The position numbers and the translations under genes are program-made. Positions 25,171 to 45,141 of a DNA stretch of 64,000 nucleotides are shown piece after piece (the stretch's first letter is position 1; each line of letters begins with the position of its first letter). The stretch lies in the NCBI RefSeq assembly GCF_000189635.1, contig NW_002476407.1:806001-870000 (forward strand), given 5' to 3'. The stretch comes from Tetrahymena thermophila SB210. Its lineage: Eukaryota; Ciliophora; Oligohymenophorea; Hymenostomatida; Tetrahymenidae. The notes below the pieces were generated by a model that did not search any database, was not told the DNA's origin, and saw only the letters and a program-made list of their open reading frames with translations.

Positions 25171-27268
25171 TCATGAATGTTCAGAATCTTAATGACTCCT
25201 ATTTTATTACACTTTTTATTTTGCAAATTCCTTTGCTTCTTTTTCAAACTAATCAATGTCCTTTTATTTATTAAATAATTTCATAATTTCTAATCTTGAC
25301 TTTCCCTTTGTCTCATACATGAAAAGCCAGAAATAAATTAAACACATGAAAGTAAGTCCACCAAAAATAAGGAAGGCACCAAATAGACCCATCGAGTTAT
25401 TCATATATGGGAATACAACACCTACTAACATAGTAAATAGCCATCTAATAAAAGAGGACCATGCCAATCCTATTCTATCTAAAATTTCATTGTTATAAAC
25501 CCAAACTGTAGTACCAAGACCTGCTTACCATCCAAACATATACTTTTTTGATAAGATTAATTTATTTAAATATGTAAGGTTGAAAAAAAAAAAAAAATTT
25601 ACTATAAAGATAAATAAAATTCCTGTAATCTAAATTCCGTAGGTTGAGGGAAGTTTTTGTAAGATAGCAAATAGCACAAGCATTACTGTTGTTAGTAATA
25701 CTGAGTAATTCATAATCGATCTTCTACCGAATTTTATTACAAGCTACATAGAAATCAATGAATATACAGCCATGGAAAGACCTAAGAAAATTGTGCAGAT
25801 TCTTGAAGTCATTTCTGAGCCAGTTGTTTACTAAAAGATTTAATTTGAATAAAAGAGCAAAGCATTGACACCTGAGCACTGAGTTCCATATTAAATAATG
25901 CAGCCAAGCGCTATTCTTTTCCAATAACTTTTTTTGTCTAGCAATTCCATTTACTTTTCATAACTAATATGTTCTTCGTTCATTATAGTCATATCGATTG
26001 CAACATTGTTGTTATGAGATTATTAAGGAGAACCTTCCTTTTGATTTGGCTTTTTATGATTTTTATCAAGCTTTTCTTCTGATTATTTAATGGATTTTCC
26101 ATTTTAATCTTAAACAGAACTTTATAGCTAATCTACTTATTCTGCTTCTGATCCAACTCCTGCTACTTCACAAATTTCAGAGTAAGCCTTTTTTTAGTCT
26201 TCATCATCTTCGTAAACCATTTATAAATATTCTCTAACTTCCTAAAAGTGATGTTGTTTAACCATAATAGTAGGAGTCTCGTGAGTGAACTTAAACCAAA
26301 GTAGAAGAAGTCTCAATGTGCATGTAGCTATTGGAAGACCCAAAACAAATCTCCAGTTGACATCATAGTTGCCATCTGGATTTGTCTTGAGTTCGTTAGG
26401 AAGAGGAAGAATTAAACTCATTAAATAGCTGATGAAAACACCTGTTGTCAATAAAATTTAATTAATTGATCCCACTCTACTTCTTATTTCAACAGGTGAA
26501 AAATCTCTAATGTATTCTGGTACCAAAGATGTGTTCATACCTTAATTAATATAAATAAATCAATCAATCAATGAATTAGTGAGCAAGTTAATTATTTAAA
26601 ATTAAACAATAAAAACAAATAAATTTTAATTCAAATAAAAATTCATTTAGCTTTTATATTTTTACAAAGCTTCTATTATGTTTAAATAAATAAATTTTTT
26701 CTACTAAAATTTTATTGCAAAATTTGGATGAATAAAGGTTTGTTTTCTTGAAAAAAATATTAAGTTATGCCTAGTATATTAATTTACCTATGCAAAATCC
26801 ACTAACGATTCTTCCGATGATAAGGTTGGAGAGATCATGTTAACAAATTAGAATTATGGTACCGATTATACCAATTATATCGAAGAGGATCATAGATCTT
26901 CTTATACCTTTGAGGGCTGCTATGAGTTTCTTACTAAAAATAGCTGCTATAAGAGCACCTAAGGGCATAGCTGCAGTAATAATGGATGTAAATTAAGTAC
27001 TTTAGTCACTATCCCAATTGTTCAATTTTGCTATTACTTTCTAGCATGTGTTGTAAACTCCCAAGTTGTAGCCGAAGAAGAAAGAACCAAGACAAGCGTT
27101 TAGAGACATTAAATAAATGAATGCGGTGTGCTTTAAATGTTTCTAATGTTACTATTGTTGTTGGTGAAGATCAGGACCTGTCTTGAGGTGCTAATCCTCA
27201 TGGTTTGGCTGATTTATAGTATTACTAAATGGGTTGTTTTATGAAAGTTCTATATTCTATTTAAGCAT
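25171..27268 (-). CDS. sugar transporter (MFS, facilitated hexose-type)
   Basis: Three exons, 596 aa, ATG at 27268, TGA at 25171-25173. Introns lie at 26541-26787 and 25543-25602, the second containing a T15 tract on the sense strand. Sugar-porter signatures in order: FFFGYNLGVYN in TM1, the TM2-3 loop, GRIVSGFCIG spliced across the first intron, PEYIRDFSPVEIRSRVGSIN, the PESPR-equivalent HETPTIM, a long hydrophilic central loop of about 90 residues (about 255-345), QYGTQCSGVNALLFYSNQIF matching the QQxSGINA sugar-binding helix, IKFGRRSIM, and the closing YETKGKS. Twelve helices are expected. The longer central loop is unusual and Q/K/E-rich. The substrate is probably a hexose but cannot be fixed from sequence. 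Confidence 0.92.
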
Positions 27269-28229
27269 TTCCTAAAAATTTGTTTAATTGAGTTTTTAAT
27301 AATAATTTTTTAATTATAAATTCAATCATGAAACATTTAAATTACATAATTTACATTCGGGGAGTATTATTTTATTCAATTAATGCAATTTTTATTTTTG
27401 TTTTTAAAGAATGCAGTATTTAATAGTAAACACTCGAAGTAAACATGGACAATCCTATGATCTTTTTAGAAATAGTAAATTAAAATAGCCTACTAAATAG
27501 TTTATTTGTAAGGGAGAAACAAGAGATTCAATTTAAGAAAGTAGTTATTAACAAATGCCTTTATTAATCAAAGTATCTTTCACATTTTAACCATTTTATA
27601 AGCTGAGAAATGCTTGAAATAAATTTGCATTCAGCTTAAAAAGTTTTTTTAGAACTAAATTTATATTAAAATATAACAGAATCTTATTAATCAAGTATCA
27701 CTTATCTACATTTTAAGCAATATTTAAAATATAAAATGCTGATATATATTTTATCATTGAGTTAAAAGTCTGCAGTAAACACTAAAAAATAGTTATTCTC
27801 CTTACATTAAAATGCATATTGGTATTTTTAAGTATTATTTAGTTACGAAATTGTAAGCAGTGGCCTAAAAAGTAAATATAAATAAAGGAGATGATTAAGA
27901 AAAGACCACAATTGAAATCAAATAAAATACACAGTTCAAATTAATTTTACAAGCAATTTTATTCAGAAATATAAGTCAAAATTCAATATTAATAAAAATT
28001 TGTATCTTCGTAATCAAAAATTATGATTCATAAAGAAAAGAAGTTTCTATATAAATTTACGCATTAATTACTTCTACAATCAATTTATTTCTAATTGAAA
28101 GCTTCAATTATGTAAAACATAAACATAAAAAAAATGCATGTATATTGCTTTATCCATAATGCTCAATTTATTATTCAACAAAATTTGAGGAATTCACATC
28201 TTCATACATGAAAATAGGCTTGTATTTCC
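27269..28229. other. intergenic with one possible small frame
   Basis: About 960 bp between two minus-strand genes. Mostly AT-rich. A plus-strand frame at 27411-27617 is less biased than its surroundings and is listed separately with low confidence. Nothing else was supported. Confidence 0.5.
27411..27617 (+). CDS. possible small ORF, doubtful
   Basis: A 68-codon frame from ATG to TGA beginning MQYLIVNTRSKHGQSYD, with mixed composition (Arg, Gly, Cys, Pro) that stands out from the AT-rich spacer. No domain, signal peptide or neighbour supports it. It could be an exon of an unrecognised plus-strand gene, a relic, or chance. In this code TGA is the only stop, so chance frames of this length are common. 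Confidence 0.22.
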
Positions 28230-30281
28230 TCAGCAGCAGTTTGTTTTTTCTTAGGATTAAATTTACTAATATTTTAAACGCATTTCGCATAAAACACCAA
28301 AAAGAATATCCAACTCTTCTTATTTATTTTAAAAAAGGTTTGTATACTATTACTTTTATTAATCAAGTTTTTTGTCTTTTTAGTCTATTTAATTTTGAAG
28401 CTAACTAATCTATTAATTATAATTAGCAATTTACTTTTAAAGATCGTTTACCTTTTTCTCCCATTCGTCTGCTAACCTTGCCTTTTCAGAATTTAACTGA
28501 AGTATTTTTGAATTCTAGTCTTAATATTTTTCTTGGTATTACTATATTTCAGATTCTCTTCTTGTAATCTCCTCTTGCAAAGATCTTAGCGTCTCCTCTT
28601 GCTCTTCTTCGCGTCTTTCTTTTCTTTTCAAGCTCTTGGCTAAGAGATTTTAGTAATCATTTTTTAATTTTTCGTTTTCTTCTTTTAATTTTTCAACATC
28701 ACATTTTTCGTAAACTGATAATTTTGATTCTAATTCATGTTGAATCTTTATTTATTCAGTTAGTTTTGTTTATAACAAATTAATTTATTCTTTTAAACTA
28801 GAAGCATCTTCAAGATGAATTACGCTAGGATCTAAAGTTGTTTATTCAGATTTAAGTAATATATTTTCTCTTTCAAGATCATTAATAATTTAATTTAGAT
28901 CCTCACTCAACCCTTTGGGTCCATCATTAACCTTTTTTGCACTGACTTAATTGCTTGATTTCTTGTAATCACTATGACTTTAAGATTCATCTTGCTGATA
29001 GCGCTCTAGAATTTAACTCATATCTTACAGTTTCTCTTCTTAAAGCTAGTACTTACGTTAAACTTAATCAACTTCCCTGCGAAGCTATTCAATTTAATTA
29101 TCCCTTTAAGATATTTCTATAGCCTTTTCCATTGATTTTTTTTTCTCTTCATTGTAGCTTTACTTAAATTCTTGTAGCTTTTCCATGAGCATCTCAATTT
29201 GGCTATCCTTATCTTGCAAATTCTTATCAAATTATTTGGCCTTCTTGTCAGCTTCAGAAAACTTCTCAGAAAGCTGAGTGTATTCATCATACTTTTATTT
29301 ATAGAAGTCAAGAGATTCGCTAATTTTTTGAAGCTGCTTTAACTTTTTATTTAAGAGCGAGATTTCGTCATTCAACTTGTCTTTTTCTAATTAAGCCTAT
29401 TACTAAACAGCAACTATAGTTTGGTTTAATTATTCTATTTTTAAGTCCTTTGTTTTGACAACACTTTCAATATCTTCATTAGTACTCATACCAAGGCTGA
29501 TCATCATGCTATCACGAGACAATTTCAACTTTTTCATTTCGTCATCTTTTTTGTTAAAGTCTTTTTCATACTCTAAAATTTTACGATCTTTTTCAATCTG
29601 CTCAGTACGAAGCTCTTCTATTTTCTCATTCAAAACATCGTTTTCGCGTTCAAGCTCATCAATCTTTTTTAGAAGCTATTGATTCTACTAATAATAGTAC
29701 GATTGGGTATTATATTATATACTAGCAGAGTTGAATCTTTATGAGCTCATGCTCTCCATAGAGGCATTATCATCTCCATCTGTGTGTAAACGATCTTAGA
29801 CAATCCATTTCTCCATCAAATGCATCAAAACAGCTTAATACTTTTTCTCTAACTATGTGATGGCATGTATAAAATCACTCTTTTACTCGCTCTAAACAAT
29901 AATGCCCAAAACCAATTCTACTAATTTAACAATTTCATTTTTATTCTTATTTCTTGATATTTCGCTAGCATCTAAGTAGGTGTCTTTGTCAAAATCTTTT
30001 AATTTTAATATATCATGATAATAATGCTCAATGCTGTCAATTAATCTCTTAATGTTTCTATGATTTAAAGCCCAGTTATCTTGTGTGTCTCTTTCTACTT
30101 AATCGACATCAAAGATGCTATCATTAATCTTAGAGAGGAGTTCAGTTAAAACGATACCATCACTTAACTCTTCAAGATTTTAAGGAGTTTTACTGAGATT
30201 ATTGATTGTTTTCAAAAATTCAATAACACTTTATTCAATATCATCCATATTATAATTACTGTGTATTCCGCTCTAATCCAT
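28230..30281 (-). CDS. HOOK-domain coiled-coil protein (cargo-dynein adaptor type)
   Basis: Single exon, 683 aa, ATG at 30281 and TGA at 28230-28232. Residues about 10-165 match the HOOK-type calponin-homology-like domain: LEELSDGIVLTELLSKIN, NWALNHRNIKRLIDSIEHYY, and NEIVKLVELVLGIIVQSEQK followed by the conserved helix before LMEKW. From about 190 to the end the protein is almost entirely heptad-like coiled coil (EKIEELRTEQIEKDRKILE, KKLKQLQKISESLDFYKQK). In animals and fungi this arrangement binds the dynein light intermediate chain through the N-terminal domain and cargo through the C-terminus. The length is close to animal Hook proteins (about 720 aa). The role in this ciliate is inferred from the fold. 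Confidence 0.88.
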
Positions 30282-30865
30282 TTCTTTCAACCAAAAACTA
30301 TAAATTGATTTTTAAGCTAAATTATTTAAGTTAAAATGCTATTTGAAATGCTAATTCTATTTCTAAAGCTTTTTCTTTTGATATTAATTACTTTTACTTA
30401 CAGAAAACGAATTTTATCAAAAAAGTGTTTTAAAAATACAAATTTTTTTAAAACAAATGAAAACTATATATATATGTAAATATTCAAAAAATAGTCTTAA
30501 AAACTCATATAATTGCAAAAGGAGGAAGCATATTAATTTTACTTTTTTTAAAAAAAATATAGAAGATTAATCTTTAATTTCTTACATAAAAAAAGGAGAA
30601 AAATTTTTTGTTATGTTTTTTATTGTGTGTAGTATTATTCTGATTAAAGCAATAAATAAATTAGGACAAATAAAGTAAATAAAAACAATAAATTCTAAAC
30701 TCAAAATAATACCAAAATAAATATACATTTATAAGCACTTCACAAAAATATTTAATAAAATTCATTTTAAACTAAAAAGAATAATTTTAAATATTTTGGT
30801 TATTAATCATAAATTGAGCAAGATAATTAATTGTTGATGAATGAGAGAGTGAGTGAGTACACAAA
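30282..30865. other. 3' flank of kinase A1, left edge of the duplicated array
   Basis: About 580 bp. From roughly 30487 it contains sequence that recurs about 2.33 kb to the right, near 32816 (core AATAGTCTTAAAAA, then AAAGGAGGAA). The duplicated unit therefore includes at least 370 bp downstream of the kinase stop. No gene was seen. Confidence 0.65.
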
Positions 30866-32308
30866 TCAAAATTTGTATATTTTTTCCTTAATTTCTTAGA
30901 TTAAGTTAGCATAGTACATTTTATCACCATTGATGCGTTAGAATATTAGTGATCTCATTTCTTGTTTTTCCTATTCAATAACACTTACTATTTCTATTTA
31001 CATTTTAATTTTTTCAATTCTATTTGATTAAATTAGCTCATCAGAATCCTCTTCATCTTCTAAAGGCTACTCAAAATTGTATTTTGTATCAATTTCTACA
31101 GTTTAATAATTTAATTCAACTTCTAAAGTTAAACTGTCTTTTCTAAAAATATTTTAGGTAAATATTTCGTTATTATTTTATACTAAAATGCTTAGTAAAA
31201 CTTTTAAAAGATCTTAAGTACTCATTTCAGTTAAAAGAGAACCACCATAAAGCTCAATTCTATCAATTTTGCGTGGCTATTATTTGAAAAATGTTTCTTA
31301 CCACTCTTTAAATGAATCAAAGTTTTCGCTTTCACTCATTAGATCGCAATATTATTTATGAACTTAATTTATTTTATATTAAATTGATTCACCTTCACCT
31401 CTGTTACCATTTTGATCTTCTCCGAATTTTACCAGAAATTAAAACATAAGATTCTCATCTGATTTAGATTTTTCCTCGAAATTTTTTGTATAAATGTCAT
31501 GTTATTATATTTAATTTATATCTTTGATTTCTCCGCTCAATATTTTATAAATTAAATCGAATATATCTTCATCTAAATCTAATTCCTTTTTGTAAGCTTC
31601 TCTATAAGAGCTCAATATTGCTCGCTTGAACAAATGTCTTTTCTTTAGTTATGCAACTTTCTTAATACCTGTAGTTAATCTTATGTAGAATAAAATGTGA
31701 AAAAGTAGCATTCCCAATTAGTATACATCAAGCTCTTATGGGCTATACTCTTCAATTTACTTACCAGATAATAAGAATTGTTCAAAATCTTCAATTATTT
31801 TAGGTGGATTATAACTAAGAGTTCCGCAAATCTCTCTAGATTTACAATTCTTACAAGCTCTTTAGTAATGACCAAAATCAATTATAATAACCTTATAATT
31901 TTCTTAATCTTAATTATCTAATAAGATGTTTTCAAGTTTAATATCACAGTGGCAAACATTTTTTTCATGTAAAATTTTAATCTTCTCAACAACTTATTTA
32001 AACAGTTTCAAAGCTAAATATCTACATTTTATTCCTTTTTAATTCGAAACTAATTCTACTAATTATGAATTTATAAATGGAAATATCAGTTCCTTCTTAC
32101 TATCATCAAATAAAATTAGCTCTAAGAAAGAACTTTATTGTTCTTTAGCAATTTCATTTTTTAGAACTTTTTCATAAAATTGTTTCTCTCTTACATAATC
32201 ATTTTCGAATTCAAATATCTTCCTAAAATAAACATTCTACCTTGCTTCGCATTTAAATACCTCGCCTCTAGCTTATCCTCCATAAAATTCAGCTTTATCC
32301 TCTTCCAT
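30866..32308 (-). CDS. protein kinase A1 of the tandem array
   Basis: Single exon, 480 aa, ATG at 32308 (MEEDKAEFYGGQARG), TGA at 30866-30868. A compact kinase domain fills residues 1-280: possible beta-3 Lys in VYFRKIF (about 30), hinge region LIFPFINSQL, catalytic loop HCDIKLENILL (Asp122, Asn127), IIIDFGH (Asp144), activation-segment end CGTLSYNPPK in place of APE, and YSPQELDVYQLGMLLF for helix F. The glycine loop is reduced (YGGQARGEVF). Residues about 330-480 form a second conserved module with PRKIDRIELYGGSLLTEM and LTLEVELNY, shared by all six copies. Catalytic residues are present, so it may be active. No membrane segment is present; the substrate is unknown. Confidence 0.88.
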
Positions 32309-33154
32309 TAGTGCCTAGTTTCAATGCTTTTATAATTTTATTAATAATGAACTTTTAATTCAAGATAGATAAATAGATATAAAGAAACTATTTTCTTTAT
32401 TGAATTTTTTATTGTTATTATTATTATTCTTCTTCTTCTTCTGATGATTCTCTCTCTAAATTTATAAAAGCAGAAAAAAATCTTATGAATCGAGCGAGTT
32501 AATCAGATAAAAAAAATTTGATTAATAATTATCGAAACATATCCTTCCTTTATATAAAAGTATTTTATTTTTTTATCTATCTTAATATAAAATATTTTTA
32601 ATTGATTTCAATAGGGGAAAAAACATAAATATTGAAATTAAAACTTTGCTCAAGATTGAATTTACTATCTTATTTATATATTTTTAATTAAAATTTTTCT
32701 AATAAGCTTGGCTTCTATGAAGAAATAAACAGTAGATACCCATTAATTTGCAAAAAAAAAGATTTGAGATTTTGCTTATTCTTTGACTTTTTGTCAAACA
32801 AATTAACAAAATTCACAAAATAGTCTTAAAAATGCATATAATTATAAAAGGAGGAACCATATTAATTTGCTTTTTTTTTAAAAATATAGAAGATTATCTT
32901 TAATTTCTACATAAAAAGGAGATAAATTTTTTTGTTTTGCTTTTTATCGTGTATAGTATTATTCTTATTAAAACAATAAATAAATTAGGACAAATAAATT
33001 AAATAAAAACAATAAATTCTAAACTCAAAATAATACTAAAATAAATAACATTTTTAAGCACTTCACAAAAATATTTAATAAAATTCTTTTCTTAAAGTGA
33101 TAAAATTATTTTAAATATTTTGGCTATTAATCTTAAAATGATAAGTAATGCAAA
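32309..33154. other. spacer between kinases A1 and A2
   Basis: About 850 bp. The right part (from about 32816) repeats the 3' flank of A1. The left part holds the A1 promoter and shares AGGGGAAAAAACATAAATA with the upstream regions of A2 and A3. No gene was seen. Confidence 0.6.
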
Positions 33155-34627
33155 TCAAAATTTGTATATTTTTTCCTAAATTTCTTAGATTAAGTTATCA
33201 TAGTATATTTTTTCACCATCTCTGCTTTAGAATATTAATGATCTCATTTCTGGTTTACCCTATTCAATAACACTTACTACTTCTATTTACATTTTAATTT
33301 TTTCAATTCTATTTGATTCAATTAGCTCATCTAAATCTTCTTCATCTTCTTAAAGCTACTCAGAATAGTATTTTCTATCAATTTCTACTGTTTAATAATT
33401 TAATTCTACTTCTAAAGTTAAACTGTCTTTTCCTTTTCTAAAAATATTTTAGCTAAAAATTTGGTTATTATTTTCTGCTAAAATGCTTAGTAGAACATTT
33501 AAAAGATCTTCAGTACTCATTTCAGTTAAAAGAGAACCACCATAAAGCTTTTTTCTATCAATTTTGCGTGGCTATAATTTGAAAAATGCTCCTTACCACT
33601 CATTAAATTAATCAAAGTTTTCACTTTCTCTCATTAGATCACAATATTTTTTATGAGCTTACTTTATTTCATTTTAAATAGATTCACCTTTACTTCTACT
33701 ACTATTTTAATCTTCTTTGAATTTTACCATATCTTCAAATTGAAGATCTTCTTCATCTGGTTTTATTTTACCCTAGAGATATTATTGATAAATTTAATGC
33801 TATTATATTTAATTTATCTCTGTGATTTCTCGGCTCAGTATTTAAAATACTAAATCGAATATATCATCATCTAAAATTAATTCAGTTTTGTATTCTGATT
33901 TATATAATTTCTTAATTTATTCCTTGAAAAAGTCTTTTTTCATCTTATTTTATGCAACTTTCTTAAGACTTATACTTAAATATAGCTAGGTCAACATACG
34001 AAAAAGTAGCATTCCCAATTAGTATACATCAAGCTCTTATGGGCTATACTCTTCAATTTACTTTCCAAATTTTTTTAATCGATCCGCATCTTCAATTAAT
34101 TTTGGTGGATTAAATTCAGTAGTTCCACAATTCATAGTAGATTTACGATTTAGTTCTTAGTATTGACCAAAATCAATTATAATAACCTTGTAATTTTCTT
34201 TATCTTAAACATTTACTAATAAGATGTTATGTACTTTAATATCACAGTGGCAAATATTTTTTGAATGTAAAATTTTAATCTTCTCAACAACTAAGTGAAA
34301 TAGTTTCAAAGCTAAATATCTCGATTTTATTCCTTTTTATTTGGTACACTTATCTACTAATTTTGAATTTATAAAGGGAAATATAAGTTCCTTATTATTA
34401 TCATTAAAGTGAAGTAGCTCTAAGAAAGAGCTTCTATCTTTTGGATCAATTTTTATTAGAATTTCTTTATAAAATGCTTTCTCTCTCACATAATCTATTT
34501 CTTCATCAAATATCTTCTTAAAATAAACCTACTTTGTCTTTTAGTCTGTATATATCAAGCCTGTAGATTATCCTCCTTCAAACTTAACATCATTTAACTA
34601 ATAATTGCTGTCATCCCAGTCTTCCAT
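33155..34627 (-). CDS. protein kinase A2 of the tandem array
   Basis: Single exon, 490 aa, ATG at 34627 (MEDWDDSNYQ), TGA at 33155-33157. Closest in layout to A1 and A3. Glycine region FEGGQSTGLIYTD, Lys in VYFKKIF, catalytic loop HCDIKVHNILL, DFG in IIIDFGQYQ, CGTTEFNPPK and SPQELDVYQLGMLLF are all present. The C-terminal module is conserved (PRKIDRKKLYGGSLLTEMS) and ends EKIYKF as in A1. About 10 residues longer than A1 at the N-terminus. All residues needed for catalysis are visible. It is probably expressed from its own short promoter, as the spacer upstream (598 bp) is conserved with that of A3. Confidence 0.88.
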
Positions 34628-35225
34628 TTGTGTTAAGCTTCAATGCTTATATAATTTTTATTAATAATGAACTTTTAATTCAAGATAGATATAAAGAAAC
34701 TATTTTCTTTATTGATTTTTTTTATTATTATTAATTTTTTTTTTTTTTGATTTTTCTCTCTCTAAGTTTATAAAAGTTGAAAAAAATCTTAAATATCAAG
34801 TTAATTTTTTATTAATAATTGTCAAAATATATGTTCCATATATAAAAGTGTTTTAAATATTTGTTATTGTTATTTATTCAGATTTTTACTTAAAAGTATA
34901 AAATAGTTTTAATTTATTTTAATAGAGGGGAAAACATAAATATTGAAATTAAAACTTTGCTCAATTGAATTAATTTGATAAAAATGACTAATTTTAAAAA
35001 ATTTTCTAATTTGAAAATACCTTCCATAATTATTAATTTAATTTTTGTGCTTTTTTTATTTAGTTTTAAAAGGAGTGAGTGAATGATGTAGAAATAAAAG
35101 TATATTGAAAAAAATAAATTACAAATAACAAATTAATGAAAAATATAAATGAATAAATAAAATAAATCTATCTGTCAATTAGTATAAACATTATTTATAT
35201 ATAAATAGTTGAAAAATGAATAAAG
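34628..35225. other. spacer between kinases A2 and B1
   Basis: About 600 bp, homologous to the A3-B3 spacer at 40764-41301. It contains the A2 promoter side (TATATAATTTTTATTAATAA) and the 3' flank of B1 with AAAAGGAGTGAGTGAATG. No gene was seen. Confidence 0.65.
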
Positions 35226-36647
35226 TCAAATAATTTTTTGTAAATCTCTTGAGAGATCTTCAATTAAATTATTATAATAGATAGATTCTCCTTTTATGGG
35301 TGTGAAGATAATAGATTTTATTTCTGATTACTTCAATTCTTCAATCATAACAATTTCTATCTGAAATTCAATATTATTTTGTATTTCTTCAATTTCAAGT
35401 TCTTATAAATATTCTTCATTGTCATCATCAGTACCCTCTTCAATAATTACATCTTTGGAAATATATTTTAAAGTGACTTTCAAGGTTAAGTCTTATGTTT
35501 ACCCAAAAATATTTTGATCAAATACTTCAGAATTATTTTTACCAAAGCAATACAATAAGTGTTATAATATTTAAGATGTTTTCATCTCAAATAAGAAAGA
35601 TCTTGTTTTGAGTTCTCTCTCCTTTATTTATCGTGGGTTTTTATCACAAAAAAATTTGATTTCTTAAATTAGTTCATCATATCTTGTGCAATTTGACTTT
35701 AACATATTATTAAACTCTTTATTAATGCTTATTGTATTATCATTTCTATTTCCATCTTCATTTTTCCTAATAAAAATGTTGTTAAATTCTTCTTCAATCT
35801 AAAAAACTTTTTTATTTCCAGTTTATGGGAGGTCTTTCAACATATTTTTGACTTCCTATAAATTGTAAACTTAGTGGTGGAAGATTTAAGCAACATCTTC
35901 AATTTATCCAGTTAAAAGATCCCAAATAAGATCAAATACTTCAGATTACATTAATAATTCAGTATTATATTATTCTCTGTATTAAGATAAAATAATTCTT
36001 AAAAATATATTTTTTTTATTCGAACTTATCACATTTTTAATTTTATTAGGAATCTTAAGACATGTAATTAAAGTCAAGAGAAGCATACCCAATTAATATA
36101 AATCCAACTTGTAGGGATTGTATGGTTTAACTTATGATTAAGCAAATCCTTCATTTAATTCAAATGAATTATAAGCTTATGATAGTTCATTTTATTTTAT
36201 TTTTTAGCAGTACCCAAAACCGATAAGAATATCTTTAAAACCATTAGAATATTACTCTACAAGGATATTATCTATTTTTATATTACAGTGACATAAATTT
36301 AAAATGTGCAGTTGTTTAATGCTATTAGCAACTTATGTAAAATGGTACAGGGCTCTTATCCATTTCATTCCTTTAGTATTATCACTATTTCGTTGATAAA
36401 AAATCTGATCAAGCTAACAATTAATAAAGGGGAATACAATCTAACGCTTGTGGTCATCATATTTAATCACTTTTAGGATGCTAAGATCAACTTCATTGGT
36501 AATTTCATTTAAGTGTTAGTAGATTGCTTTTTAGCAATTATAGACTCTTTTGCTGAAAAACTATTTGGTAAAACAGACTTAGCCATTTAAGGTTTATACC
36601 TTGCAAGTAGATGATTAGTGATAAAAATTAATTTTAAAATCTTCCAT
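35226..36647 (-). CDS. degenerate kinase B1 (predicted pseudokinase)
   Basis: Intact single-exon frame, 473 aa, ATG at 36647 (MEDFKINFYHQSS), TGA at 35226-35228. It aligns residue for residue with B2, but key kinase positions are changed. The glycine pair CGGQS of B2 is YHQSS here. The catalytic loop reads HCNIKIDNILV, so the catalytic Asp122 is Asn (codon at 36282-36284). DFG is GFG in LIGFGY (codon at 36219-36221). The activation-segment CGTLTYN is missing. Helix F (LDLYQLGMLLLTL) and the C-terminal module are preserved. The open frame over 473 codons suggests it is still translated or decayed recently. It cannot be catalytically normal. It may act as a scaffold or decoy of the B copies. 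Confidence 0.85.
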
Positions 36648-37246
36648 TTTTTGCTTTTTTGTTTTTTAGATGTTTTCTTTATGAAATTTTTTTAAAAAAT
36701 AAAATTAATTAAAAAGTCTTTTATTTTTAATAAAATAAATTATTAAATTTTCCATCTGTTTAGACTAACTTACAAATTCAGAAAAAAAGCACCTACAACT
36801 TATAAAAATAAAAGTATTTTTTGAGTAGAAAAAGACAGATTATAAGAAGGATTTAGAAGAATCTGATCAACTGAATTAAAATAATAAGATTTTTAATTAA
36901 AATCTATTTTAAAAAGTTTATTATGAAAAAATATTAATTATTAGTAAAAGTCTATGCAAAAAATTATGATACCATATATTTTAGAAAGAATGGGATTAGG
37001 ATATTATTAAAATTTATATTATTTGGTACAAAAAATGTTAATTTATAATTGTGTTTTTTTTTTTTTATGTAATTTTAAAAGGAGTGAGTGAATGCAGTAG
37101 AAATAAAATAATATTGAAAAAAAATAAATTAAACACAGCAATTAATAACAAAAACTATGAAAAATGTAGATGAATAAATAAAATAAATCTATCTGTCAAT
37201 TAGTATAAACATTATTTATATATTAATAGTTGAAAAATCAATAAAA
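36648..37246. other. spacer between kinases B1 and B2, with a gene relic
   Basis: About 600 bp. It holds the B1 promoter side, the fossil described at 36747-36876, and the 3' flank of B2 (AAAAGGAGTGAGTGAATG). Confidence 0.65.
36747..36876 (+). pseudogene. relic of the first exon of the gene at 43110-45141
   Basis: The stretch from TTTTCCATCTGTTTAGA to GGATTTAGAAGAATCTGATC matches the start region of the plus-strand gene beginning at 43110 (its exon has GGATTTAGAAGAGTCAGATC). Relative to that exon there is a one-base change in an A-run that breaks the frame, an in-frame TGA, and no ATG at the expected place because about 70 bp are missing. Homology ends abruptly after about 105 bp of coding-like sequence. 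It was carried along when a B kinase with its upstream flank was copied. Confidence 0.75.
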
Positions 37247-38695
37247 TCAAATGAGTTTTTCTAACTCTCCTAAAATATCTTCAATTAAATTATTATAGTA
37301 GATAGATTCTCCTTTTATGGGTGTGAAGATAATAGATTTTGTTTCTGTTTACTTCAATTCTTCAATCATAACTATTTCTACCTGAAGTTCAATATCATTT
37401 TTTATTTCTTCAATTTTAGGTTCTTTTAAATCATCGTCATCATCATCATCAGTACTATCTTCAGTAATTACTTCTTTGGAAGTATATTTTAAAGTGGCCT
37501 TCAAGGTTAAATTTTATGTTTACACAAAAATATCTTGATCAAAGACTTCAGAATTATTTTTATGAAAGCAATACAACAAGAGTTATAATATTTAAGATGT
37601 ATTCATCTCTAATAAGAAAGATCTTTTTTGGAGTTCACTCTCCTTTATTTATCGTGGGTTCTTATCACAAAACTAAATGATTTATTCTTTTAATTCCTCA
37701 TATTTTGTGCTCTCTTGTAACATTTCCTAAAACTCTTTTTCAATGCTTACTGTACCATTGCATCTATTTCCATCATCTTTTTTGTAAAACCTTATGTTAT
37801 CAAAGTTAAATTCTTCTTCTTCTTCCATCTAAGAAGCTTTTGTATTTCCAGTTTATGGGAGGCATTTCAACATATTTATGACTTCTTATAAATCATAAAC
37901 TTCGTGGTCTAAGATTGAAGCAACATCTTCAATTTCTCCAGTTAAAAGATCCCAAATAAGGTTATATACTTCAGGTATCATTTGTAAATTAGTATTATAA
38001 GTTTCTTTGTATTTTAAGGTAATCAATTCTAAAAATTTATTTTTTTTCTTCAAACTTATTAACTTTTTATTTTTCTCAGAAATAGGAAAATATACAATTA
38101 AAGTCAAGAGAAGCATACCCAATTAAAATAAATCCAACATGTAAGGGCTGTATTCTTTGATTTGTTATTTAGCAATTCCTTCATTTAATTCTAATGGATT
38201 ATAGGTTAAAGTTCCACAAACTGCTTCTGATTTTTCATTTTATTTCTTACTTTAGCAGTGCCCAAAATCGATAAGAATATCTTTCAAACCATTTGATTAT
38301 TACTCTACAAGGATATTGTCTACTTTTATATCACAGTGGCATAAATTTAGACTGTGCAGTTTTTTAATGGTATTAACAACTTATGTAAAATGATACAGAG
38401 CAAATATCCATTTCATTCCTCTTGTATTGTTTTGTTTTACTTTAGAGCAAATCAAAGAAAGCTAAAAATTAATAAAGGGGAATAAAATCTAACACTTGTG
38501 GTCATCATGATCGATCATTTTTAAGATACTGAGATCAATTTCTTTGGTAATTTCATTTAAGTGTTAGTAGATTTTTTTTTCGTGATTATATTCTGTTTTA
38601 GTGAAAAACTCTTTCAAAAAATAGATGTTGCCTTTTTATGTTTCTACCCTATAGCAAACAGATTAGCCTCCACAAGCAATTTATTTAGCTTCCAT
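37247..38695 (-). CDS. protein kinase B2 of the tandem array
   Basis: Single exon, 482 aa, ATG at 38695 (MEAKQIACGGQSVC), TGA at 37247-37249. Kinase landmarks: CGGQSVCYRVE, Lys in IYFLKEFF, LFPFINFQL, HCDIKVDNILV (Asp122), LIDFGH (Asp143), CGTLTYNPLELNEG and LDLFQLGMLLLTL. The C-terminal module contains NPRQIKESELQ, SQILQLLLYCF and an Asp run (TDDDDDDDL) before the closing LGELEKLI. It is nearly identical to B3 at DNA level, with substitutions scattered and the frame kept, so both are probably recent and functional. The upstream 300 bp are also shared with B3 until a breakpoint near 38980. Confidence 0.88.
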
Positions 38696-39290
38696 TCTTT
38701 ATTTTTTTATTTTTTAGATATTTTTTGATTAAATTAATTATATATTATTTAAGAGAAATCATAGAGAATTTTAATCAATTAATTAATGAATTAAAAAGTC
38801 TTTTATTTATTTTTTTAATAAAATAAATTGTTTAAAAAAAAAAACACTTTTATTTTTAGTAAAGATAAAATAATAGATAGATAGAGGAAGTCTTGAAAAT
38901 AAAATTCTTTTAAAAATGCATTATTTTGACTTTAATTAGCTTTAAAAGGAAAACAAATTCCATTTTATTTTTTCTACCTGTTATATAAAGGATATTGACA
39001 ATGCGAACCCAAAAATATAGTTCACCATTTTTTCATTTTTACACGTTTTTATTTTAAAATTACTTTTGAAATTTTATTTTTTTACATTTTATAAAATAAG
39101 AGAAATTTTTTGGATAAATTTTTTAAATTTTATTTGTTATAATTAATCATGGTTTTTTTAAATGTAACATTTACAAGCACTTCACAAAAAGATTTAATAA
39201 AATTAATTTCTTAAAGTAATAAAAATAATTTAAAATATTTTGGTTATTAATTATAAAATGAGCATGATAATTGTCGATGAGCGACACAAA
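38696..39290. other. spacer between kinases B2 and A3
   Basis: About 595 bp. 38700 to about 38980 matches the region upstream of B3 and stops just where the neighbouring plus-strand gene would begin. The rest resembles A-type 3' flanks (ACAAGCACTTCACAAAAAG). No gene was seen. Confidence 0.65.
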
Positions 39291-40763
39291 TCAAAAATTG
39301 TATATTTTTTCCTTAATTTCTTAGATTAAGTTAGCATAGTACATTTTTTCAGCATCGCTGCTTTAGAATATTAGTGAACTCATTACTTGTTTTCCCTTTT
39401 CAATAACAGTTACTATTTCTATTTACATTTTAATTTTTTCAATGATATATGATTAAATTAGCTCATCAAAATCTTCTTCATCTTCTTAAAGCTACTCAGA
39501 ATTGTATTTTCTATCAATTTCTACAGTTTAATAATTTAATTCTACTTCTAAAGTTAAACTGTCTTCTGCTTTTCTGAAAATATTTTAGCTAAAAATTTAG
39601 TTATTATTTTCTGCTAAAATGCTTAGTAGAACTTTTAAAAGATCTTAAGTACTCATTTCAGCAATAAGAGAACCACCATAAAGCTTTTTTCTATCAATTT
39701 TGCGTGGCTATAATTTAAAAAATGCTCCTTACCACTCATTAAATGAATCAAAGTTTTCACTTTCTCTCATTAGATCACAATATTTTTTATGAACTTAATT
39801 TATTTTATTTTCAATAGATTCACCTTCACTTCTATTGCTGTCTTAATCTTCTTGGTATTTTACCATATCTTCAAATTGAAGATCTTCATCTTCATCTGGC
39901 TTTATTTTACCCTCGAGATATAATTGATAAATGTAATGTTATTAAATTTATTTTATCTCTGTGAATTCTCGGCTCAGTATTTAAAATACTAAATCGAATA
40001 TATCTTCATCTAAAATTATTTCAGTTTAGTATGTTTTTTGATATAACTTCATTATTTTTTTTTTGAATAATTATCTTCTCTTATTTTATGCAACTATCTT
40101 AAGATCTATACCTATTTGTAGCTAGGTCAATATTCTAAAAAGAAGCATTCCCAATTAGTATACATCAAACTCTTATGGGCTATACTCTTCAATTTACTTT
40201 CCAAAGTTTTCGAATAGTTTCTGACCTTGAATTAATTTTGGTGGATTATATAACTCAGTTCCGCAAATCATTGTAGATTTAATATTTAGCTCTTAGTATT
40301 GACCAAAATCAATTATAATAACCTTGTAATTTTCTTTACCTTAGCCATTTATTAAGATGTTATCGAATTTAATATCACAGTGGCAAATATTTATTTCATG
40401 TAGAATTTTAATCTTCTCAACAACTAAGTGAAACAATTTCAAAGCAAAATATCTGGATTTTATTCCTTTTTATATGGTACACACTTCTAAAAATCTTTAT
40501 TTTATAAATGGAAATATTAATTCCTTATTATAATCATTAAAGTGAAGTAGTTCTAAGAAAGAGCTTCTATCGCTTGGAGCAATTTCCATTAGAACTTTTT
40601 AATAAAATGTTTTCTCTCTGTCATAATCTTATTCATTATTAAATATCTTCTTAAAACAAATCTGCTATGTGCTTTAGTCTGTAAATATCAAGCCTGTAGA
40701 TTATCCTCCTTCAATTATTCGAACAGCATTTTACTCATAATCGCTGTCATTTATGTCTTCTAC
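39291..40763 (-). CDS. kinase A3, expected start codon lost
   Basis: A 491-codon frame aligned end to end with A2, TGA at 39291-39293. Where A2 has ATG-GAA-GAC, A3 has GTA-GAA-GAC at 40763, two substitutions. No in-frame ATG occurs in the flank read upstream. The next in-frame ATG is over 60 codons inside (VLMEIAPSD), after the glycine loop and beta-3 Lys. The kinase core is otherwise complete: EGGQSTGLIF, HCDIKFDNILI, IIIDFGQYQ, CGTELYNPPK, SPQEFDVYQLGMLLF. The C-terminal module is also intact and ends EKIYNF. Either it starts from an unseen upstream exon or a non-AUG codon, or it is a very young pseudogene. Coordinates give the homologous extent. Confidence 0.7.
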
Positions 40764-41301
40764 TAGTGTATAGTTTAAATGCTTATATAATTTTTATTAA
40801 TAATGAACTTTTAATTCTAATAAATATTAAGAAGCTATTTTCTTTATTGTATTTATTATTATTATTAATTTGATGTTTCTCTCTCTAAATTTATAAAAGT
40901 TGAAAAAAATCTTATAAATCAAGTTAATAGATACACTTGATTAATAATTGTCAAAATAAAATATAAAATATTTTTAATTTATTTTAATAGGGGAAAAAAC
41001 ATAAATATTGAAATTAAAACTTTGCTCAAGATTGAATTTAATGAAAATCACAAATTAAAAAAATTTTCCAAATTTGAAAATACCTTCCATAATTGTTAAT
41101 TTATTATTGTGCTTTTTTTTTTTATGTAGTTTTAAAAGGAGTGAGTGAATTCTGTAGAAATAAAATAATATTGAAAAAATAAATTATAAACAGCAATTAA
41201 TAACAAAAACTATGAAAAATGTAGATGAATAAATAAAATAAATCTATCTGTCAATTAGTATAAATATTATTTATATATTAATAGTTGAAAAATGAATAAA
41301 A
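40764..41301. other. spacer between kinases A3 and B3
   Basis: About 540 bp, homologous to the A2-B1 spacer: ATGCTTATATAATTTTTATT next to A3 and AAAAGGAGTGAGTGAAT next to B3. This supports an ancestral A-B pair copied as a unit. Confidence 0.65.
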
Positions 41302-42753
41302 TCAAATGAGTTTTTCTAACTCTCCTAAAATATCTTCAATTAAATTGTTATAGTAGATAGATTCTCCTTTTATGGGTGTGAAGATAATAGATTTTGTTTC
41401 TGTTTACTTCAATTCTTCAATCATAACTATTTCTACCTGAAGTTCAATATCATTTTTTATTTCTTCAATTTTAGGTTCTTTTAAATCATCGTCATCGTCA
41501 TCATCAGTACTATCTTCAGTTATTACATCTTTGGAAGTATATTGTAAAGTGGCTTTCAAGGTTAAATTTTATGTTTCCTCAAAAATATTTTGATCAAAGA
41601 CATCAGAATTATTTTTATGAAAGCAATACAACAAGAGTTATAATATTTAAGATGTATTCATCTCTAATAAGAAAGATCTTTTTTGGAGTTCACTCTCCTT
41701 TATTTATCGTGGGTTCTTATCACAAAACTAAATGATTTATTCTTTTAGTTCCTCATATTTTGTGCTCTCTTGTAACATTTTCTAAAACTCTTTTTCAATG
41801 CTTACTGTACCTTCGCTTCTATTTCCATCATCTTTTTTGGTAAATGTTATGTTATTAAAGTTAAAGTATTCTTCTTCTTCTTCCATCTAAGAAGCTTTTG
41901 TATTTCCAGTTTATGGGAGGCATGTAAACATTTTTTTGACTTCTTATAAATCATAAACTTCGTGGTCTAAGATTGAAGCAGCATCTTCAATTTTTCCAGT
42001 TAAAAGATCCCAAATAAGATCATATACTTCAGATTTCATTTGTAAATTAGTATTATAAGTTTTTTTGTATTTTAAGGTAATACATTCTAAAAATTTATTT
42101 TTTTTCTTCAAACTTATTAACTTTTTATTTTACTCAGAAATAGGAAAATAAACTATTAAAGTCAAGAGAAGCATACCCAATTAAAATAAATCCAACATGT
42201 AAGGGCTGTATTCTTTAATTTGTTATTTAGCAATTCCTTCATTTAATTCTAATGGATTATAGGTTAAAGTTCCACAAACTGCTTCTGATTTTTCATTTTA
42301 TTTCTTACTTTAGCAGTGCCCAAAATCGATAAGAATATCTTTCAAACCATTTGATTATTACTCTACAAGGATATTGTCTACTTTTATATCACAGTGGCAT
42401 AAATTTAGACTGTGCAGTTTTTTAATGGTATTAACAACTTATGTAAAATGATAAAGTGCCAATATCCATTTCATTCCTCTTGCATTGTTTTCTTTTACTT
42501 TAGAGCAAATCAAAGCAAGCTAAAAATTAATAAAGGGGAATACAATCTAACACTTGTGGTCATCATGATCGATCATTTTTAAGATACTGAGATCAATTTC
42601 TTTGGTAATTTCATTTAAGTGTTAGTAGATTTTTTTTTCGTGATTATATTCTGTTTTAGTTAAAAACTCTTTCAGTAAATAGATGTTGCCTTTTTAGGTT
42701 TTTACCCTATAGCAAACAGATTAGCCTCCTTAAGCAATTTATTGAGCTTCCAT
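41302..42753 (-). CDS. protein kinase B3 of the tandem array
   Basis: Single exon, 483 aa, ATG at 42753, TGA at 41302-41304. It differs from B2 by scattered substitutions and single-codon length changes. HCDIKVDNILV and LIDFGH are intact, with the same CGTLTYNPLELNEG activation segment and LDLFQLGMLLLTL. The Asp run before the final helix varies slightly in codons from B2. It lies head to head with the plus-strand gene at 43110, with only 356 bp between the starts. Relics of that neighbour beside B1 suggest that the B3 position is the ancestral one. All catalytic residues are visible, so an active cytosolic Ser/Thr-type kinase is likely. Substrates are unknown. Confidence 0.88.
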
Positions 42754-43109
42754 TCTTTATTTTTTTGTTTTTTAGATATTTTTTTATTAAATTAATTATA
42801 TATTATTTAAGAGAAATCATAGAGAATTTTAATCGATTAATTAATGAATGAATTAAAAAGTCTTTTATTTATTTTTTGAATAAAATAAATTGTTTAAAAA
42901 AAAAACACTTTTATTTTATTATAGATAAAATGATAGATAGATAGAGGAAGTCTTGAAAATAAAATTCCTTTAAAAATGCATTATTTTGACTTGAATTAGC
43001 TTTAAAAGGAAAAAAAATTCTATTTTATTTTTTCCATCTGTTTAGAGTAGTTTTTAAGATTTATTTTTGAATAATAATTAATATTTAGTTATATTCTCTA
43101 ACAATTTAT
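42754..43109. other. bidirectional promoter region (kinase B3 / RS-rich gene)
   Basis: 356 bp between divergent starts. Large parts recur upstream of B2 (38700-38980) and partly upstream of B1, including GATAGATAGAGGAAGTCTTG and CTTTTATTTATTTTTT, consistent with a duplicated B-type promoter. Confidence 0.6.
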
Positions 43110-45141
43110 ATGAACACCTCCAATCTGAGAAAAAAAAGTACCTACGACTTATAAAAATAAAAGTATATTTCGAATAGAAAAAGGCAGGATTATGAGAAGG
43201 ATTTAGAAGAGTCAGATCCTGACGAATATGAAAACGATTTAAATGATTTAAAACAAAGATTGCATATTATAAACTACAATTATTACACAGAAGCATTGAG
43301 ATTAGCTTTAATTGAAAAAAGTGTATTTTTTACTCTTTATAAGAAGTTCTACAAATTTTCTATTTTATTTCATCATAAAATGTTTTTTCTACCATTTATA
43401 TTTTTTTTTTTTTTTGCTATAATATTGCGTAGCGTCCACTGATGCCTTTGAAGTTGGGGCCTTTAGTCTAAAAAGTAAAACACATTTTTTTTAATAATAA
43501 ACTGATACATACGAGTTTGTCTATTTCTTTTTTTGGATTATAATCTTTTTCTCTCTTATTTAGTAAACACTTTAAGCTGACTATCTTAGAGGAGTAAATG
43601 GATAAACAGCCATTACAGGATAGTTTAACTAAGGTAATATATTATAATATAATGATTTAACATCCTAGACTTACAAGCAAATGTATCAAAATCAGCAAAA
43701 TTATTAACATATAAGACAATCCTAAAGCAGTCCAAAGTTAATGTAATTTTCTTTCTTCAAGATTTATTTTAATAAAGTGTTTTAAAATAGAAATAGTCAA
43801 AATAATCCATATGGCAATTAGCAATATTAAAGAAATTCATTTTAGAATTATCCTGCTTAAAATCTAGACGCTGTATAGCTTCCACAAATAAACCAAAGTG
43901 CAGTTTATTAAAAACCTAAGTATAAGGAATAGCTACCAATGATAAGTTCTCCAACAGGTTCAAATTAGGGTCAAAATAGACTTTCTTTTGACTAACAGCA
44001 ATATATAAACAACTTATAAACTTAATAAATGAACTATCCTTAGTACGATACAACTAAATTATAACAGCAGCGTTTAACTTAGCTTGGAACTCCTTATGAT
44101 AACTAAGAATATTTTTAAGTAATAGATGGCAAAAAATATAAAATTAAGCAAATGTCTGTGAATAGTCCTTAGATTTAAGTCTTCGGAGCTGATGAATATG
44201 CATAATAGAGGAAGAAGAAAAAATCAGTCTTTCACTCTAAATAAAATGATTAAATGTATTCTAAGAAGTAAATTATTTATTCGATTATACAAAATAATGC
44301 TTTTATACTAAATGATTCTTTATTATGTAGATAATTAAGAGATTATGAATAGCAGGAAGAGGAAGATTAATATGATTAACCAGTGTCTAAAAGCAGAAAA
44401 AGTATAAATGCAAGATCCAAAAGAAACATAGAAATGAAGTCATAAAAGAAAATAGATAACTATGAAGATGATGGATATGATGACTAAGAAGATTATGATG
44501 ATAATTATAAAAGATCAAGATAGTCTAAAAGCAAGCTGAAGTCAAAACAATAAATTAAATATGATTAAGATGATGATGAAGAAGATCAATACAACACAAG
44601 ATCTAGGAAAAGAAATAAATCAAGAAAACTTTCAAGAGCTTAAGAGCAAGAAGATGGTGATTATGATGATAATAGATCAGTTAGAAGTAACAAGAGAAGT
44701 AAATCAAGAAAAAATACTGTCTCATCTAGAAGAGGTGGTGACTATTAAGAAGAAAATGATGATGATTATATTTAGAAAGGCAAGAAAAAGAATAAATCTA
44801 AATTTTTTAAAAATGAAGATATTGATGACTTAGATGACTTAGATGAGTTTAAGCCCAAACAAAACGCAACAAATGACAATCAAAGTGAATATGACAATAC
44901 CAAAAATCAAAGGAAAAAGACTTTTATTAAATCTAGAAATTAAGATGATGAATTCAACTAAGATGATAGAACCTAAAACCAAACCCAAAAAAAGAAAAAG
45001 ACTATTATCATAAACGAAGATAACTAAGATAGCAAATATAAAAGAAGAGATGCCACTGAAAAAAAGAAAACTGTGCTCATGTCTAAAAATTAAATTAAAA
45101 GTTTAAAGCATCTAAAAGACTTAGAGGCTGATGATTTATGA
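43110..45141 (+). CDS. Gln-rich, Arg/Ser/Asp-rich low-complexity protein
   Basis: ATG at 43110 (MNTSNLRKKSTYDLQ), TGA at 45139-45141, about 584 aa with introns at 43321-43432, 43475-43576 and 44268-44330. The first has a weak GTGTAT donor, yet splicing gives a smooth join (IEKTSTDAFEVGAFSL). A further in-frame 48-nt intron near 43740-43790 is possible. Domain order: helical N-terminus with DYEKDLEESDPDEYENDL, a Q/N/P/Y-rich middle (about 90-300), then a long tail alternating basic SR/RS/KSRK patches with Asp-rich runs (DDEEDQYN, IDDLDDLDEF), ending LKHLKDLEADDL. It resembles RS-type nuclear proteins but has no RRM or zinc finger. Probable nuclear localisation is inference. Confidence 0.75.

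What the first reader, a model, noticed from the sequence alone, without database searches (positions are those of the whole stretch)
30480..43040. Six-copy tandem kinase array with two alternating subtypes
Six divergent protein kinase genes sit in direct orientation as A1 A2 B1 B2 A3 B3, with spacers duplicated along with them. A2-B1 and A3-B3 share the same spacer, so an A-B pair seems to be the ancestral two-gene unit. Both subtypes carry the same C-terminal module of about 150 residues after the kinase domain, for which I recognise no named family. The DNA shows several rounds of local copying followed by different fates, a live lineage-specific expansion.
Basis: partly seen in the sequence, partly recalled or inferred. 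Interest (0 to 1): 0.8.

Follow-up and report, generated by a model that had tools for sequence, protein, structure and literature searches.

The report
Tandem array of KA1-type protein kinases
A ciliate, almost certainly Tetrahymena thermophila, carries a real six-gene cluster of protein kinases, relatives of which were found only in other Tetrahymena, and their unnamed tail is predicted to be a KA1 domain, the regulatory tail of kinases such as Chk1 and MARK; local gene expansion is common in this genus, but the fast-changing kinase halves and the copies with damaged active sites are worth testing.

Summary
Six kinase ORFs (A1 A2 B1 B2 A3 B3) lie head to tail at 30866-42753, all on the minus strand, with spacers copied along. 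The genome is almost certainly T. thermophila SB210; it holds seven full-length members, these six plus a dispersed copy, B4. Full-length relatives were found only in T. utriculariae and T. malaccensis.

All 15 coding indels counted keep the frame (3 of 31 in flanks), so the ORFs are maintained. Yet mean dN/dS is near 1, and the A kinase half is unusually variable. Site models favour positively selected codons, but a neutral hot-spot model fits about as well, so adaptive diversification is not proven. B1 and B4 have different active-site lesions; A3 lacks the aligned start codon.

Best mechanism (inferred): KA1-regulated kinases, some copies of which became KA1-bearing pseudokinases.

The parts
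30866..32308 (-). A1: kinase-KA1 ORF, 480 aa, ATG to TGA; catalytic-loop and DFG motifs complete (CHCDIKLEN, IDFG, CGTLSYNP)
   Evidence: code 6
33155..34627 (-). A2: kinase-KA1 ORF, 490 aa, motif-complete (same as database protein P0009)
35226..36647 (-). B1: 473-aa ORF, predicted pseudokinase (HRD Asp to Asn, DFG to GFG, CGT motif deleted, GGQS changed to YHQS); sister of B4. The database model P0005 starts later (380 aa)
37247..38695 (-). B2: kinase-KA1 ORF, 482 aa, motif-complete; youngest pair with B3
39291..40763 (-). A3: kinase-KA1 frame, 490 codons; the codon aligned with A2's ATG is GTA. Next in-frame ATGs are 41090 (upstream) and 40589 (downstream, giving the 432-aa database model P0010, which lacks the N-lobe lysine)
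41302..42753 (-). B3: kinase-KA1 ORF, 483 aa, motif-complete (same as database protein P0001)
41302..41712 (-). C-terminal region of B3 (residues 348-483) with the predicted KA1 fold; homologous regions 37247-37657 (B2), 35226-35636 (B1), 39291-39707 (A3), 33155-33571 (A2), 30866-31276 (A1)
   Evidence: AF2 model; fold matches; region starts
34628..35225 (.). Spacer A2-B1, copy of the A3-B3 spacer (89.2% identity over 518 aligned sites)
40764..41301 (.). Spacer A3-B3, copy of the A2-B1 spacer

Best explanation
The array encodes a small family of divergent, CAMK-like protein kinases, known so far only from Tetrahymena: an N-terminal kinase domain (about residues 1-270), a linker, and a C-terminal KA1-fold domain. 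It grew from an ancestral adjacent A-B gene pair by at least three rounds of duplication in the T. thermophila lineage. Mechanism, inferred from the KA1 fold and from Chk1, MARK and SAD: the KA1 domain holds the kinase in check by docking on it, or anchors it to a partner, and an activating signal releases it; an invariant Ser just before the CGT motif is a candidate activation-loop site. All 12 KA1 regions are acidic (pI 4.1-4.7), so docking on the kinase or on a protein partner is more likely than the acidic-lipid binding reported for KA1 domains that use basic patches. Copies B1 and B4 (and A3, if it starts at the downstream ATG) would be KA1-bearing, catalytically dead or impaired forms that could act as decoys or scaffolds. 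Shown here: array, frames, motifs, homology, predicted fold, maintained reading frame. Inferred: autoinhibition, activation, decoy role.
Against: No Foldseek match of the C-terminus reaches E 0.001, and rows 1-8 have TM-scores of 0.33-0.40 by the query. A PDB sequence profile of the C-terminus finds no KA1, only PI3K-delta at E 1.5. None of the six full-length window proteins lists KA1 in Pfam at E up to 10. No UBA domain is listed between kinase and KA1. The full-length model has low confidence in the activation loop and linker, so no docking pose can be read. TSSK6, CDKL3, CDPK and IKK kinases score as well as the CAMKL ones, and no kinase tree was built. No expression or activity data were available.
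Confidence: 0.6

Rival explanations
1. Diversifying selection: the kinase halves of the A copies (and perhaps B) are driven apart by an antagonist or partner, as in immune or self-recognition families, while the KA1 half is held more constant.
For: M2a beats M1a by 2dlnL 37.8 in A1-A3 (7.6% of codons at omega about 10), and 0 of 60 datasets simulated under M1a reach that; in B1-B4 the same comparison gives 30.0 (from the lnL values). 25 of 28 A sites with posterior above 0.5 lie in the kinase half. Sites with three states in A1-A3: 36 of 792 in the kinase half, 1 of 356 in flanks, 2 of 639 in the C-terminus. The signal stays when codons within 5 columns of an indel are left out (33.3, 408 codons).
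Against: A neutral hot-spot model (some fast codons, omega at most 1) fits A better than M2a (lnL -3202.5 and -3202.1 v -3206.1) and is within 1 lnL unit of it away from indels and in B. Mean omega of the A kinase half is 1.08, not different from 1 (2dlnL 0.17). Against neutral simulations only A1-A2 kinase lies outside the 95% range (P 0.02; 1 of 21 comparisons). Total divergence of the A2/A3 kinase half (0.145) is not above that of their 3' flank (0.156). In B the two halves have equal omega (1.01, 0.96). Three or four sequences give little power.
Confidence: 0.25
2. Relaxed, nearly neutral drift of redundant duplicates: the array is copy-number noise, with copies on the way to becoming pseudogenes.
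For: Mean omega is near 1 in the A kinase half and in both halves of B and within the neutral-simulation range in 20 of 21 comparisons. B1 and B4 have lost catalytic residues and A3 the aligned start codon.
Against: 15 of 15 coding indels keep frame, while 28 of 31 flank indels would not. No internal TGA in 8712 bases of coding frame, though with TGA the only stop this is weaker evidence. Catalytic-loop, DFG and CGT motifs are complete in A1, A2, A3, B2 and B3. 24-37% of A codons fit omega 0. B2/B3 omega 0.45 (2dlnL 4.9 against 1); A C-terminus 0.67 is lower but not significantly below 1 (2dlnL 2.2).
Confidence: 0.25
3. Assembly artefact: allelic or repeat copies stacked by the assembler.
For: B2/B3 are close (96.4% in coding DNA). 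Reads could not be mapped here.
Against: The other pairs within A and within B differ by 11-20% in coding DNA and have distinct indels; no Ns. The protein database holds B3 and A2 and partial models of A3 and B1, all from a contig of 979536 bases, close to but not the same as C138's 977500.
Confidence: 0.03

Closest known systems
Chk1 (kinase + linker + KA1; human Chk1 ends at residue 476)
   Same: Size and order of domains; its KA1 is the best Foldseek match of the C-terminus (5wi2); KA1 mutations activate Chk1 (PMC4454167, abstract and passages)
   Different: 12-13% identity in the KA1 alignments; HCD in place of HRD; orthology and checkpoint SQ sites not tested
MARK/PAR-1, SAD/BRSK, MELK, Kcc4/Gin4/Hsl1 (kinases with KA1)
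   Different: No UBA domain listed; [quoted passage not shown]
Species-specific tandem gene families of Tetrahymena (Xiong et al. 2019, PMC6564038; abstract and passages seen)
   Same: Protein kinase is one of seven domains prominent in species-specific genes, which show tandem duplication and relatively rapid evolution
   Different: The passages centre on LRR genes; this family, its A-B pair and its KA1 tail were not in the passages I saw

Membership tests
KA1 fold (kinase-associated domain 1) | Two helices packed on a sheet of about five strands | tested here: met
   AF2 model: five strands and two main helices in residues 48-181 of the piece; Foldseek rows 1-8 and VIA rows 1-40 are KA1 or AMPK/SNF1-family entries. 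A prediction, not a solved structure; definition from passages of PMC4454167 and PMC4686854
KA1 fold (kinase-associated domain 1) | Position: C-terminus of a protein kinase | tested here: met
   Six of six window ORFs: Pkinase match in the N-terminal 270 residues, KA1 region at the C-terminus
KA1 fold (kinase-associated domain 1) | Recognition by Pfam PF02149 (a detection threshold rather than a trait) | tested here: inconclusive
   2 of 12 C-termini match, best E 0.041; 0 of 6 full-length window proteins list it at E up to 10
Eukaryotic protein kinase | Pkinase profile above cut-off, with beta3 Lys, catalytic Asp, metal-binding Asn and DFG | tested here: met
   PF00069 above 31.7 bits in 6 of 6. 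Lys column invariant in 12 of 12. Catalytic Asp, Asn and DFG present in 10 of 12: not in B1 and B4
CAMKL subfamily | Kinase domain groups with AMPK/MARK/Chk1 in a kinase tree | tested here: inconclusive
   Best PDB profile hits include MARK, MELK, BRSK2 and HSL1, but TSSK6, CDKL3, CDPK and IKK score alike; structural neighbours Pim1, PhK, CaMKII, Chk1 and CLK3 are tied; no kinase tree was built
Chk1 orthologue | Orthology by reciprocal best match; checkpoint SQ sites | not tested
   Only architecture and KA1 fold were compared
Pseudokinase (B1, B4) | Loss of residues needed for phosphoryl transfer in an otherwise kept kinase domain | tested here: met
   B1: CHCNIK, IGFG, CGT motif absent; B4: CHCDIKVDH, IDFK
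Pseudokinase (B1, B4) | No kinase activity | not testable with these tools
   Needs an assay

The most novel reading that the evidence does not exclude
The array is a diversifying recognition system built on a paired A-B kinase-KA1 unit: kinase heads are selected to vary, KA1 tails keep a common dock, and copies with lost catalytic residues are retained as KA1-bearing decoys that titrate or shield the active kinases against a fast-changing antagonist or partner.
Probability: 0.12. Interest if true: 0.7.

Novelty: new member of a known kind. Interest (0 to 1): 0.4.

Why it matters
It gives a name and a testable mechanism to a module that sequence searches miss: a divergent KA1 domain on kinases found so far only in Tetrahymena. 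Ciliate kinomes are very large and many of their families are ciliate-specific (PMC3341644, passages). Here one locus in a genetically tractable model holds active-looking and damaged copies with the same tail, at several ages, so the change from kinase to pseudokinase and the role of KA1 can be compared side by side. If the excess change in the A kinase half proves adaptive, it would point to a conflict or recognition role that I know of for no KA1 kinase (recalled).

Tried and rejected
Pfam and NCBIfam scans: for the C-terminus only weak KA1 hits (2 of 12); the NCBIfam hits of B3 and A2 are generic prokaryotic kinase models far below cut-off. PDB sequence profile of the C-terminus: eight PI3K-delta sequences at E 1.5-1.6, taken as chance. 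The Kdo/WaaP Pfam match (above its cut-off in A1, A2, B1, B2 and B3) was set aside: it covers little more than the catalytic loop and scores below Pkinase. KA1 in the own genome by PF02149: one match, on contig C276, not followed. Simple positive selection was considered and not accepted, because the neutral hot-spot model fits as well. A faster B1 branch was tested: B1 omega 1.29 v 0.87, 2dlnL 1.47, not significant. Assembly artefact rejected on divergence.

The paper under PMC1557398 is not held. Paper searches. By title and start of abstract, no paper listed there is about this array or about KA1 kinases of ciliates. One search ('KA1 domain' with 'ciliate') listed two papers, PMC6451319 and PMC3019232, neither of which I opened. 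Listings were cut at 6-20 rows, and no paper was read whole. Absence of an A gene in T. malaccensis and of the C type in T. thermophila rests; searches scored only the candidates that share most words, and one search did not list A2 itself, so absence is weak.
Full report
OBSERVATION. Under the ciliate code the stretch 30866-42753 holds six kinase frames, all on the minus strand. The A/B typing is right; the + order is A1 A2 B1 B2 A3 B3, not strictly alternating. Spacers are copied with the genes: A2-B1 v A3-B3 is 89.2% identical over 518 sites. No Ns.

ORGANISM. The window lies in a 101-Mb, 445-contig genome. A protein named 'kinase domain protein (macronuclear) [Tetrahymena thermophila SB210]' on a 359106-base contig (P0002) is identical to an ORF on the genome's contig C135, also 359106 bases. 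So the genome is almost certainly T. thermophila SB210.

FAMILY SIZE AND SPREAD. Own-genome searches with B3, A2 and a T. utriculariae relative find seven full-length members: the six, plus B4 at C135:59009-60427(-). All other listed hits are partial, nearly all confined to the kinase domain, at E 1.8e-10 or worse. In the protein collection of about 5.8 billion sequences the full-length relatives are T. utriculariae P0011 (A type), P0003 (B type) and P0007 (C type), and T. malaccensis P0004 (B) and P0006 (C); the other hits cover at most 44% of the query (searches scored only the best-sharing candidates, and one search did not list A2 itself).

HISTORY. The protein tree of 12 rows gives A1, A2 and A3 with Tu_A, and ((Tu_B,Tm_B),((B1,B4),(B2,B3))). 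The (B1,B4) and (B2,B3) forks have 100/99 support, (A2,A3) 97/98, and the fork joining A1 to A2+A3 only 67/72. Codon-model dS is 0.25-0.31 for A1 v A2/A3 and B1/B4 v B2/B3, 0.24 for B1/B4, 0.17 for A2/A3 and 0.07 for B2/B3: at least three rounds. A2-B1 and A3-B3 as two plain copies of one block does not fit the B tree, though the spacer divergences do not exclude it; unequal exchange is a likely reason. B4 shares about 270 bases of 3' flank and 315 of 5' flank with the array end 41036-43091, so it left with flanking DNA.

THE KINASE DOMAIN. Structure neighbours (Pim1, PhK, CLK3, CaMKII, Chk1) are tied, and profile neighbours include MARK, MELK, BRSK2 and HSL1 with others at similar scores. The activation segment has an invariant Ser (12 of 12) and CGTxx(Y/F)NP (11 of 12, missing in B1). 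Catalytic-loop and DFG motifs are complete in A1, A2, A3, B2, B3 and the five relatives of the other two species. B1 has CHCNIK, IGFG, no CGT motif and YHQS for GGQS; B4 has His for the metal-binding Asn and DFK for DFG: two different sets of lesions in sister genes. A3 has GTA where A2 has ATG; the database model of A3 starts at 40589 and lacks the N-lobe lysine.

ARE THEY GENES? In the four pairs counted (A1/A2, A2/A3, B1/B2, B2/B3) 15 of 15 coding indels are multiples of three; in six flank comparisons 3 of 31 are (Fisher p 1.6e-9). Left out of that count: the flank pairs B1 3'/B2 3' (3 indels, one a multiple of three) and B1 5'/B3 5' (1, not a multiple), and the coding pairs A1/A3, B1/B4 and B4/B3 (all multiples of three). 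Comparisons share branches, so the counts are not independent events. Reading frames are therefore maintained in the array copies, B1 and A3 included.

RATE OF CHANGE. Mean omega is near 1: A kinase half 1.08, A C-terminus 0.67, B kinase half 1.01, B C-terminus 0.96; neither A value differs significantly from 1. Neutral simulations with the flank mutation spectrum give mean counting omegas of 0.81-1.11; 1 of 21 comparisons, A1-A2 kinase, lies outside its 95% range (P 0.02). Site models find more: M2a over M1a by 37.8 in A (0 of 60 null simulations reach it) and 30.0 in B; 25 of 28 high-posterior A sites are in the kinase half. In the A kinase half 36 of 792 sites show three states, against 1 of 356 in flanks and 2 of 639 in the C-terminus; rate heterogeneity is found in the kinase half but not in flanks or C-terminus. 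Pairwise, the A kinase half differs by 0.22, 0.25 and 0.15, the 5' flank by 0.12, 0.11 and 0.09, the 3' flank by 0.16, 0.11 and 0.16 (A1/A2, A1/A3, A2/A3), so the excess is clear for A1 and not for A2/A3. A model with neutral hot codons fits A better than M2a and is within 1 lnL unit of it elsewhere. So the kinase half of A changes unusually fast, but selection is not separated from mutational or conversion hot spots.

MECHANISM. KA1 mutations make Chk1 constitutively active (PMC4454167, abstract and passages), and KA1 domains take part in membrane or lipid binding in MARK and SAD; in SAD the inhibitory element is a neighbouring sequence, not KA1 itself (PMC4686854, passages), which is a caution for the autoinhibition model. 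The 12 KA1 regions here have pI 4.1-4.7, the kinase halves 5.7-8.8. I therefore favour docking on the kinase or a protein partner over acidic-lipid binding. Copies with dead or impaired kinase heads but an intact KA1 could act as decoys. This is inference.

CONTEXT. Xiong et al. 2019 (PMC6564038; abstract and passages) report protein kinase among the seven domains prominent in species-specific Tetrahymena genes, with frequent tandem duplication and relatively rapid evolution. The Ich genome paper (PMC3341644, passages) notes large ciliate kinomes and likely pseudokinases. The array is thus an example of a known trend; the KA1 identification, and the contrast between kinase half and tail in the A copies, are what is added.

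Noticed in passing
L011, G000:C135:59009-60427: Dispersed B copy (B4) carries about 270-315 bases of array flank on each side and has its own active-site changes (Asn to His, DFG to DFK).
   Followed up: partly
41090 (-) and 35027 (-), leaders of A3 and A2: Both A leaders contain a similar upstream ATG frame (MEGIF...); in A3 it is in frame with the kinase and open throughout, in A2 it ends in TGA at 34878 before the kinase start.
   Followed up: partly
28230-30416 (-): Neighbouring gene is a HOOK-domain coiled-coil protein (PF19047, E 1.4e-22).
   Followed up: no
25171-27325 (-): Sugar transporter (PF00083) split over two open frames, perhaps by an intron.
   Followed up: no
T. utriculariae P0007 and T. 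malaccensis P0006: A third (C) type of the family exists in both relatives; in G000 its best matches are the B genes at 39-43%, so T. thermophila may have lost it.
   Followed up: partly
A1, 30866-32308: No database protein equal to A1 was listed in the A2 search, although A2 and a model of A3 were; A1 may be unannotated or modelled at another length.
   Followed up: no
43300-45141 (+), at 44104-44162, v L011 3261-3316: A 59-column match (90%) to the flank of B4, just beyond the main flank match; it may be low-complexity coding sequence or a further piece of the moved segment.
   Followed up: no
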